DNA from: Buchnera aphidicola (Mindarus keteleerifoliae)
GTDB taxonomy: Bacteria; Pseudomonadota; Gammaproteobacteria; Enterobacterales; Enterobacteriaceae
Reading direction: 5' to 3'
Length of the DNA stretch: 64,000 bases
Assembly (NCBI RefSeq): GCF_039392895.1
Contig: NZ_CP135027.1
Coordinates: 124,001-188,000, forward strand
Shown: positions 5,762 to 6,993 of the stretch, piece after piece
How positions within the stretch are numbered: position 1 is the stretch's first letter
How the letters are laid out: the number at the start of each line of letters is the position of its first letter
Position numbers and translations under genes: made by a program
Notes under the pieces: generated by a model
Databases searched by the model: none
What the model was told of the DNA's origin: nothing
The model's input: only the letters and a program-made list of their open reading frames with translations

Positions 5762-6046
5762 ATGTTAATTATTCATGCAACACAACGAGATAAAATTGGG
5801 AAAAGTGCAAGTCGATTATTACGAACAAAAAATAAGTTTCCAGCAATAGTTTATGGAAAAAAAAAACCAACTTTACATATTCAGATAGATAATAAAATTA
5901 TTATTAATTCAACATTTTTTAAAAAAAATATAAGGTTAATCATTTGTAATGAAAAATATATTGTTTCGATAAAAGAAATTCATTATCATGCATTTAAACC
6001 TAAAATAATACATATAGATTTTATTTATATAGATGAAATTAAATAG
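5762..6046 (+). CDS. rplY: RplY, 50S ribosomal protein L25
   Basis: 5S rRNA-binding protein of the large subunit. The 94 residues equal the short E. coli-type L25 without the CTC extension. The N-terminal SASRLLRTKNKFPAIVYG region and the C-terminal HIDFIYI strand fit the family. A run of 10 A at 5857-5866 encodes the Lys stretch after VYGK and is in frame, a useful contrast to the frame-shifting runs in prmC, ung and pth. An AGGA ribosome-binding site precedes the ATG. In E. coli rplY lies near proL, and here a proL relic follows. Confidence 0.96.
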   Translation: MLIIHATQRDKIGKSASRLLRTKNKFPAIVYGKKKPTLHIQIDNKIIINSTFFKKNIRLIICNEKYIVSIKEIHYHAFKPKIIHIDFIYIDEIK

Positions 6047-6105
6047 TTTTTCTTTAAAATATAAATTTTTTTCAATATTTAAAAAATTTTTATAGAAATA
6101 AATTT

Positions 6106-6181
6106 CGGCACGTAGCACATAGCTAGGTAGCATACTGTCATAGAGTGTCAGTGGTCGGGGGTTCAAATCCCTCCGTGCCGA
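6106..6181 (+). tRNA. proL: Degraded tRNA-Pro (proL-like) gene with anticodon altered to AGA
   Basis: A 76-base cloverleaf with a perfect 7-bp acceptor stem (6106-6112 with 6174-6180), discriminator A at 6181, and an intact T arm (6157-6173). C1-G72 and A73 are Pro-type features, and the sequence closely resembles E. coli proL as I recall it, including the U.U mismatch in the anticodon stem. In E. coli proL also lies near rplY. However, the D stem (6115-6118 with 6130-6133) has two mismatches, the D loop is enlarged, and the anticodon at 6142-6144 reads AGA instead of the expected GGG. CCA is not encoded. It is probably a tRNA pseudogene; altered decoding is the less likely alternative. Confidence 0.75.
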
Positions 6182-6228: not shown

Positions 6229-6993
6229 TTAGATAGAAACAATTTTTAATATTGCGTGTCTAAAAAATGATACTTTTGGATGAAATTGAAGTAAAATCAA
6301 ACTAATTAATCCAATAAGAATTAATGTAATTCCAATATAATTTATTTTTTTAATTGATAATGAAAGAGTTAAGAATTCATTAGGATTTTTATTTCTATTT
6401 AACCATAACAACCATATTCCCATAGAAATAATTAAAAAAGTAGTTAATATTATCCATTTTAGATAGTTATCTTTTTCATTATATTTTGGAGAGTCTATAA
6501 CAATTCCTGTTATAATCCCGGGAAAAAAATATATAGGAGGCCATAATAAACAACCAATTATATCAGGAATTATAAATTTTTTAAAAGGTAGTTTTAACAT
6601 TCCTGAAACCATTGGAATTAGAGCTCTGGTAGGTCCTATAAAACGACCAATAAGTATAGTAGCTAAGCTATGATTTTGTACGGTATTTTTAATTTTTAAT
6701 AAAATCAATTTATATTTCTTTATGTTTTTAAATAAATGAAAGCATCGTTTAAATTTTAAACCTAAAAAATAAGATAACCAATCTCCTATTAAACAACCTA
6801 TTGTACTGGCAATCCATGCCGAATAAAAGTTTAATGTTTGGTTACCTATTAAAGTTCCTATCATGGACATAAAGACGATACCTGGCAAAAATAAACCAAC
6901 GATTGCCAATGATTCCAAAAAAGAAATTATAACTATAATGATAAAAGAATAAGCTAAAGATTGCAACAGTAATAATTTTAACCATGATTCCAT
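6229..6993 (-). CDS. yabI: YabI, DedA/SNARE-associated family inner-membrane protein
   Basis: Polytopic membrane protein of the DedA family, whose members are linked to lipid (undecaprenyl phosphate or phospholipid) translocation and envelope homeostasis; the exact substrate here is unknown. The 254 residues include the family core: a LESLAIVGLFLPGIVFM segment, GDWLSYFLG, and the conserved GRFIGPTRALIPMVSGM motif near residue 117. About five or six hydrophobic segments are visible, two of them close to the C-terminus. It stands alone on the minus strand and diverges from ksgA. The closest enterobacterial relative is YabI. Confidence 0.9.
   Translation of the reverse strand: MESWLKLLLLQSLAYSFIIIVIISFLESLAIVGLFLPGIVFMSMIGTLIGNQTLNFYSAWIASTIGCLIGDWLSYFLGLKFKRCFHLFKNIKKYKLILLKIKNTVQNHSLATILIGRFIGPTRALIPMVSGMLKLPFKKFIIPDIIGCLLWPPIYFFPGIITGIVIDSPKYNEKDNYLKWIILTTFLIISMGIWLLWLNRNKNPNEFLTLSLSIKKINYIGITLILIGLISLILLQFHPKVSFFRHAILKIVSI

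What the first reader, a model, noticed from the sequence alone, without database searches (positions are those of the whole stretch)
6106..6181. proL-like tRNA with anticodon AGA and broken D stem
Acceptor and T arms are intact and Pro-like, but the anticodon expected as GGG is AGA, and the D stem has two mismatches; the stem and anticodon changes from the E. coli gene are mainly G-to-A or C-to-T. If dead, Pro codons must all be read by the UGG tRNA. If still charged with proline, it would insert Pro at Ser UCU codons, so inactivity is more likely. It seems to capture a tRNA gene in mid-decay, with promoter-independent arms still near-perfect.
Basis: partly seen in the sequence, partly recalled or inferred. 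Interest (0 to 1): 0.62.

Follow-up and report, generated by a model that had tools for sequence, protein, structure and literature searches.

The report
Dead tRNA keeps a useful stem
A proline tRNA gene in this aphid symbiont (Buchnera) has lost its ability to read codons, and in many related symbionts the same dead gene has been worn down to one short GC-rich stem just after a ribosomal-protein gene, which suggests that the stem has a second job unrelated to translation.

Summary
Window 6106-6181 is the proL (tRNA-Pro GGG) orthologue. Its anticodon is AGA, two D-stem pairs are broken, and the acceptor and T arms are intact. Two congeners keep a perfect GGG tRNA at the same rplY-proL-dedA junction, and the only other Pro tRNA in this genome is UGG, so decoding death is well supported. 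'Mid-decay' is only half the story. In 23 other Buchnera genomes, from at least 7 genera, the cloverleaf is degenerate, in most beyond recognition (interior no better than shuffled sequence). Yet both strands of the acceptor stem survive 3' of rplY with no broken pair, with 3 or more compensatory changes and 2 plus-strand G-U wobbles. Thirteen further genomes examined have neither arm; none has only one. Where tRNA-Ala(GGC), in a matched position 3' of gltX, is absent (16 genomes), no stem remains. The stem persists where the neighbour dedA has gone, and no U-run follows it. Best reading: the acceptor stem of this dead tRNA is kept by selection as a structure in the rplY 3' UTR, either an exonuclease barrier or a maturation signal resembling plant mitochondrial t-elements. 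The window copy is an early stage. Function is inferred; no transcript data were available.

The parts
5762..6046 (+). rplY (ribosomal protein L25), the gene directly upstream; the element lies 58 nt after its stop codon
   Evidence: ORF; synteny in relatives; spacing
6105..6112 (+). U(-1) and 5' strand of the acceptor stem (TCGGCACG); conserved element, 5' half
6174..6181 (+). 3' strand of the acceptor stem and discriminator A73 (CGTGCCGA); conserved element, 3' half
6115..6133 (+). broken D arm: C11-A24 and A12-C23 mismatched, G10-U25 wobble, D loop 2 nt longer than in congeners; an alternative UAGC/GCUA hairpin is predicted
   Evidence: sequence; congeners; folding
6135..6151 (+). anticodon arm; stem CTGTC/GTCAG as in congeners, loop ATAGAGT, anticodon AGA at 6142-6144 (GGG in congeners)
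6157..6173 (+). intact T arm (GGGGG/CCCTC, loop TTCAAAT)
6229..6993 (-). dedA-family gene (yabI), convergent neighbour; undetected in several genomes that keep the stem

Best explanation
Window 6106-6181 is a proL gene (tRNA-Pro GGG) that no longer decodes. Its acceptor stem is kept because it also serves, at RNA level, as a structured element in the 3' UTR of rplY. Across Buchnera the tRNA function has been lost repeatedly (UGG reads all Pro codons), and in many lineages the D arm, anticodon and finally T arm erode while the GC-rich 7-8 bp acceptor stem remains. The product is a hairpin or closed stem that most likely sets and protects the 3' end of the rplY transcript: either as a barrier to 3'-5' exonucleases, or as a tRNA-like cleavage signal of the t-element type, which the window copy, with T arm intact, could still be. 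Shown: orthology, selective survival of the stem, paired retention of its two arms, association with rplY rather than dedA. Strongly inferred: death of decoding. Inferred: transcription with rplY, 3'-end function, choice between barrier and processing signal. My estimate is about 0.85 that the stem is kept by selection for a non-decoding role, and about 0.45 for the 3'-end mechanism in either form.
For: Pattern TCGGCACN{45,75}GTGCCGA occurs once per genome in 23 of 71 reduced genomes, and the reversed control pattern never does; every site checked lies 3' of rplY. Variants bring the set to 29 genomes. Stem identity to an intact relative is 14-16 of 16 in all 24 degenerate copies, while the interior does not clearly exceed the best of 100 shuffles in 20 of 24 (clear exceptions G000, G118, G287); interior GC is 4-31% in all but G000 and G287, against 75% in the stem. 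Pair table over 29 genomes: no broken pair among 1:72 to 7:66; C4-G69 to U-A in 3, G7-C66 to A-U in 4 (genus g116 and separately G320), and two one-sided changes, both G-U on the plus strand. Thirteen genomes without the stem keep neither arm. The gltX tree implies at least 5 independent losses of the intact tRNA if a lost tRNA does not return. Matched control: where tRNA-Ala(GGC) 3' of gltX is absent (16 genomes, including 9 that keep the proL stem on a degenerate body), its acceptor stem is undetectable. dedA is undetected in G184, G271, G078 and G207, which keep the stem. Folding z-scores of the degenerate elements run from about -2.6 to -6.7.
Against: There is no expression or RNA 3'-end evidence. 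Some lineages lost the stem altogether (G321, G285, G020, all of genus g98), so it is not essential everywhere. The backbone of the tree is unresolved, so independent losses could be as few as about 5. A DNA-level site cannot be excluded formally. In G032 a degenerate tRNA-Ala also keeps its acceptor stem, so retention early in decay may be general. The control may partly reflect deletion rather than slow decay of tRNA-Ala.
Confidence: 0.6

Rival explanations
1. Plain decay: the tRNA gene is a pseudogene caught midway, and the intact acceptor and T arms are residual.
For: In the window copy most changes are G-to-A or C-to-T and fall in the D arm and anticodon; congeners are intact. G032 has a tRNA-Ala in a similar state.
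Against: In long-dead copies the interior has no detectable similarity left while the 14-16 stem bases survive; tRNA-Ala(GGC) leaves no stem when it is gone; both arms are kept or lost together.
Confidence: 0.12
2. Bacterial t-element: RNase P and 3' tRNA enzymes cleave at the remnant to mature the rplY mRNA, as degenerate tRNA-like stem-loops do in plant mitochondria (one of the two forms of the best explanation).
For: In Silene vulgaris mitochondria an armless fMet pseudogene 58 bp from atp6 yields CCA-tailed reads and is thought to serve as such a signal (PMC8662596). The window copy keeps the T and acceptor arms. U(-1), C1-G72 and A73 are conserved in nearly all copies.
Against: In many copies pairing runs 1-4 bp beyond the tRNA ends, which should hinder cleavage and CCA addition; T arms are gone in most; loops shrink to 24-34 nt.
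Confidence: 0.2
3. Intrinsic transcription terminator for rplY, dedA or both.
For: The stem lies in a convergent intergenic region; conserved terminators are common in Buchnera spacers (PMC3164680).
Against: No consistent U-run follows the stem on either strand; the loop is 24-63 nt; the stem persists where dedA is undetected.
Confidence: 0.05
4. DNA-level inverted repeat (protein-binding site), unrelated to RNA.
For: The sequence itself, not only the pairing, is nearly invariant; one site per genome.
Against: Spacer length varies from 24 to 63 bp without evident phasing; compensatory changes keep pairing; both one-sided changes are G-U on the plus strand, allowed in RNA but breaking DNA symmetry.
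Confidence: 0.1
5. The window copy is a functional tRNA with anticodon AGA (serine UCU decoder, or proline inserted at UCU).
For: A cloverleaf is still partly foldable.
Against: A broken D arm; tRNA-Ser GGA and UGA are present; there is no long variable arm for seryl-tRNA synthetase; G36, a proline identity base (own knowledge), is lost; AGA occurs in no relative examined; UCU is the commonest serine codon (457 in 31 window ORFs), so proline there would be harmful.
Confidence: 0.03

Closest known systems
t-elements of plant mitochondria (tRNA-like 3' maturation signals; e.g. degenerate fMet near atp6 in Silene vulgaris, PMC8662596)
   Same: A degenerate tRNA relic beside a protein gene that keeps the terminal stem and loses the cloverleaf; thought to mark the end of a neighbouring mRNA
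   Different: Bacterial; seen in many lineages with stem sequence and pairing conserved; often extended beyond the tRNA ends; no processing data
3'-terminal stem-loops that survive 3'-5' exonuclease processing of Rho-terminated bacterial mRNAs (processing noted in PMC7815308; the stem-loop stop is own knowledge)
   Same: Would act as a simple barrier at the end of a transcript; needs no U-run
   Different: Derived from a tRNA acceptor stem; rests here on inference from structure alone
Conserved hairpins and terminators in Buchnera intergenic spacers (PMC3164680)
   Same: Conserved structure in a spacer of a reduced genome
   Different: That study compared four Aphidinae Buchnera plus those of Baizongia and Cinara cedri; its main text names neither rplY nor yabI
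tRNA-Pro(GGG), E. coli proL
   Same: Orthologous gene; acceptor, T arm and anticodon stem
   Different: Anticodon AGA, broken D stem; dead in decoding

Membership tests
tRNA-Pro(GGG) / proL | Orthology by sequence and position | tested here: met
   Same junction rplY-proL-dedA as intact GGG tRNA in G001, G002 and G303
tRNA-Pro(GGG) / proL | GGG anticodon | tested here: not met
   AGA at 6142-6144
tRNA-Pro(GGG) / proL | Four-arm cloverleaf with paired D stem | tested here: not met
   Two D-stem mismatches
tRNA-Pro(GGG) / proL | Aminoacylated, CCA-tailed product | not testable with these tools
   No RNA data held
t-element | tRNA-like terminal stem next to a protein gene | tested here: met
   Stem 10-129 nt after the rplY stop in 28 genomes measured
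t-element | Cleaved by RNase P and/or RNase Z | not testable with these tools
   Needs RNA ends or in vitro cleavage
intrinsic terminator | GC stem followed at once by a U-run | tested here: not met
   U counts of 2-8 per 10 nt on + and 1-7 on -, without a consistent run
conserved RNA stem | Compensatory changes and no broken pairs | tested here: met
   Pair table over 29 genomes; the changes come from at least 3 lineages

The most novel reading that the evidence does not exclude
A bacterial counterpart of the t-element: a tRNA gene that had doubled as the 3'-end signal of the ribosomal-protein gene rplY lost its decoding role independently in many symbiont lineages, and in most of them only the signal, the acceptor stem, was kept, turning a tRNA gene into an mRNA 3' element still handled by tRNA-processing or exonuclease machinery.
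Probability: 0.4. Interest if true: 0.82.

Novelty: new variant of a known kind. Interest (0 to 1): 0.7.

Why it matters
It gives a graded series, from intact tRNA through broken cloverleaf to bare stem, in which loss of a tRNA and survival of a second function can be watched across many related genomes with preserved gene order. It suggests that some tRNA genes next to protein genes carry a hidden role as mRNA 3'-end structures, one that becomes visible only when decoding is dispensable, and that pseudo-tRNA relics in reduced genomes should not be dismissed as junk. It also makes a direct prediction about RNA 3' ends in well-studied aphid symbionts.

Tried and rejected
Intrinsic terminator: rejected for lack of a U-run on either strand. 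Link to dedA: rejected, since the stem stays where dedA is undetected. General property of dead tRNAs: the tRNA-Ala(GGC) control 3' of gltX shows no leftover stem in 16 genomes, with one partial exception in G032. A second control with tRNA-Leu(GAG) by pattern told only where near-intact copies are, not relics: inconclusive. Other Rfam families in the remnants: none beyond the tRNA match in L164. The genome-contig scan with rplY returned no Buchnera. The paper on Buchnera tRNAs by Hansen and Moran (2012) is not held; other papers searched do not mention the element. Plasmid similarity named some genera (g11 includes Cinara confinis, g77 Ceratoglyphina bambusae, g116 Formosaphis micheliae; G070 has the chromosome length given for Baizongia pistaciae Buchnera), but the host of the window genome was not determined.

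Full report
OBSERVATION. Window 6106-6181 is a tRNA-like gene matched by Rfam's tRNA model at 32.7 bits, the weakest of 34 tRNA matches in the genome, the next being 54.7 bits. Base by base: acceptor CGGCACG/CGTGCCG perfect; D stem G10C11A12C13 / G22C23A24U25, giving C11-A24 and A12-C23 mismatches; anticodon loop ATAGAGT, hence AGA; T arm GGGGG/CCCTC paired with one G-U. ARAGORN's tRNA-Met call at 6113-6181 is a misreading of the broken cloverleaf. Two congeners, G001 and G002, carry an intact tRNA-Pro(GGG) at the same place between rplY and a convergent dedA-family gene. Against them the window copy has 8 substitutions and 2 indel positions, while 33 other tRNAs average 2.3-2.6 differences. 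tRNA-Pro(UGG) is the only other proline tRNA found in the genome, and 292 of 478 proline codons in 31 window ORFs are CCU or CCC, so UGG must read them.

DEATH OF DECODING. AGA would read serine UCU. A36 removes a proline identity base (own knowledge), the D arm is broken, there is no long variable arm for serine charging, and tRNA-Ser GGA and UGA are present. No relative examined has AGA. I conclude that the gene no longer decodes; this is inference from sequence.

WHAT RELATIVES SHOW. Reading the rplY-dedA junction in other Buchnera-like genomes changes the picture. G303 and G326 have GGG tRNAs; G230 keeps GGG but has a broken D stem; G118 keeps acceptor, T and anticodon stems but has anticodon UAA and no D arm; G070 (chromosome 615,980 bp, the length given for Buchnera of Baizongia pistaciae in PMC3164680) keeps the acceptor and anticodon stems only; and nearly all the rest of its genus (g69), plus genera g116, g11, g84, g77 and one member of g19, keep little more than the acceptor stem. 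A whole-genome pattern search finds TCGGCACN{45,75}GTGCCGA exactly once in each of 23 of 71 reduced genomes, with no hit for the reversed control pattern.

STATISTICS. For 24 degenerate copies (the window copy included) the 16 stem bases match an intact relative at 14-16 positions. The interior clearly exceeds the best of 100 shuffles only in G000, G118 and G287. Interior GC is 4-31% in all but G000 and G287. Over 29 genomes no stem pair 1:72 to 7:66 is broken. Two pairs show two-sided changes (4:69 in genus g84; 7:66 in g116 and separately in G320), and there are two one-sided changes (3:70 in G207, 7:66 in G302), both G-U in the plus-strand RNA. In thirteen genomes that lack the element, neither arm is found with fewer than three mismatches: the arms are kept together or lost together. 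Pairing often extends 1-4 bp beyond the tRNA ends, which is not tRNA-like. This extension was not corrected for relatedness, so it is suggestive only.

INDEPENDENCE. On a gltX tree, well-supported nodes place intact genes beside dead ones in three genera (G001 and G002 beside G000; G303 beside G118; G326 beside G070, with nine further relatives outside that pair). If a lost tRNA does not come back, at least five separate losses are needed; the backbone is unresolved, so the true number may be near nine. The copies in G000 and G118 died recently and say little about long retention; the informative ones are the others.

CONTROL. tRNA-Ala(GGC) sits 3' of gltX in the same orientation in most of these genomes. 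In 16 reduced genomes it is absent there, and its acceptor stem cannot be found better than chance; 9 of these 16 keep the proL stem on a degenerate body. G032 holds a degenerate tRNA-Ala with an intact acceptor stem, a reminder that early decay can look like this. The control therefore speaks against retention being automatic, not against its happening at times. Deletion rather than slow decay of tRNA-Ala remains possible.

WHICH GENE, WHICH MOLECULE. The stem lies 10-129 nt after the rplY stop. dedA is undetected in G184, G271, G078 and G207, all of which keep the stem, so the stem goes with rplY. Both wobbles fit plus-strand RNA. No consistent U-run follows on either strand, which speaks against an ordinary intrinsic terminator. 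Variable loop length (24-63 nt) makes a DNA-binding inverted repeat less likely but not impossible.

MECHANISM. I propose that the stable tRNA, read through from rplY, once defined the 3' end of that message, and that the acceptor stem alone still does so after decoding became dispensable. Two forms are possible: a barrier at which 3'-5' exonucleases stop (in E. coli, Rho-terminated transcripts are processed by 3'-5' exonucleases, PMC7815308), or a processing signal like the t-elements of plant mitochondria, where an armless fMet pseudogene near atp6 is thought to have become such a signal (PMC8662596). Extended pairing and loss of the T arm favour the barrier for late copies; the window copy could serve as either. 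Nothing here shows transcription; that is the main gap.

NOVELTY. tRNA relics as mRNA end signals are known from plant mitochondria. I found no report of this in bacteria in the held literature, but Hansen and Moran (2012) could not be read. I class it as a new variant of a known kind.

Noticed in passing
own genome G000:C1:73899-73972 (L068) and G000:C1:342571-342657 (L073): tRNA-Ala(GGC) and tRNA-Leu(GAG) differ from congeners at 11 and 9-12 positions, far more than other tRNAs; like proL they are redundant isoacceptors and may be the next to go.
   Followed up: partly
L254 3158-3231 (G032): A degenerate tRNA-Ala with apparent anticodon AGC, weak D arm and intact acceptor stem, not called by ARAGORN.
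   Followed up: partly
L206, L163, L207 (genus g144), 3' of rplY: No acceptor stem, but another hairpin, TTGTTACTG..CAGTAACAA, conserved in all three species at the same place; its core could derive from the anticodon arm of proL.
   Followed up: no
L202 (G032), 3' of rplY: A 19-bp perfect hairpin TGTTTTAAATTGCTGTTAT..ATAACAGCAATTTAAAACA in place of the tRNA relic.
   Followed up: no
L167, L173-L177 (genus g69): dedA matches carry in-frame stops in 6 of 11 genomes, so the neighbouring gene is itself decaying.
   Followed up: no
window 6113-6181: ARAGORN names the broken gene tRNA-Met(CAT), a likely source of wrong annotation.
   Followed up: yes
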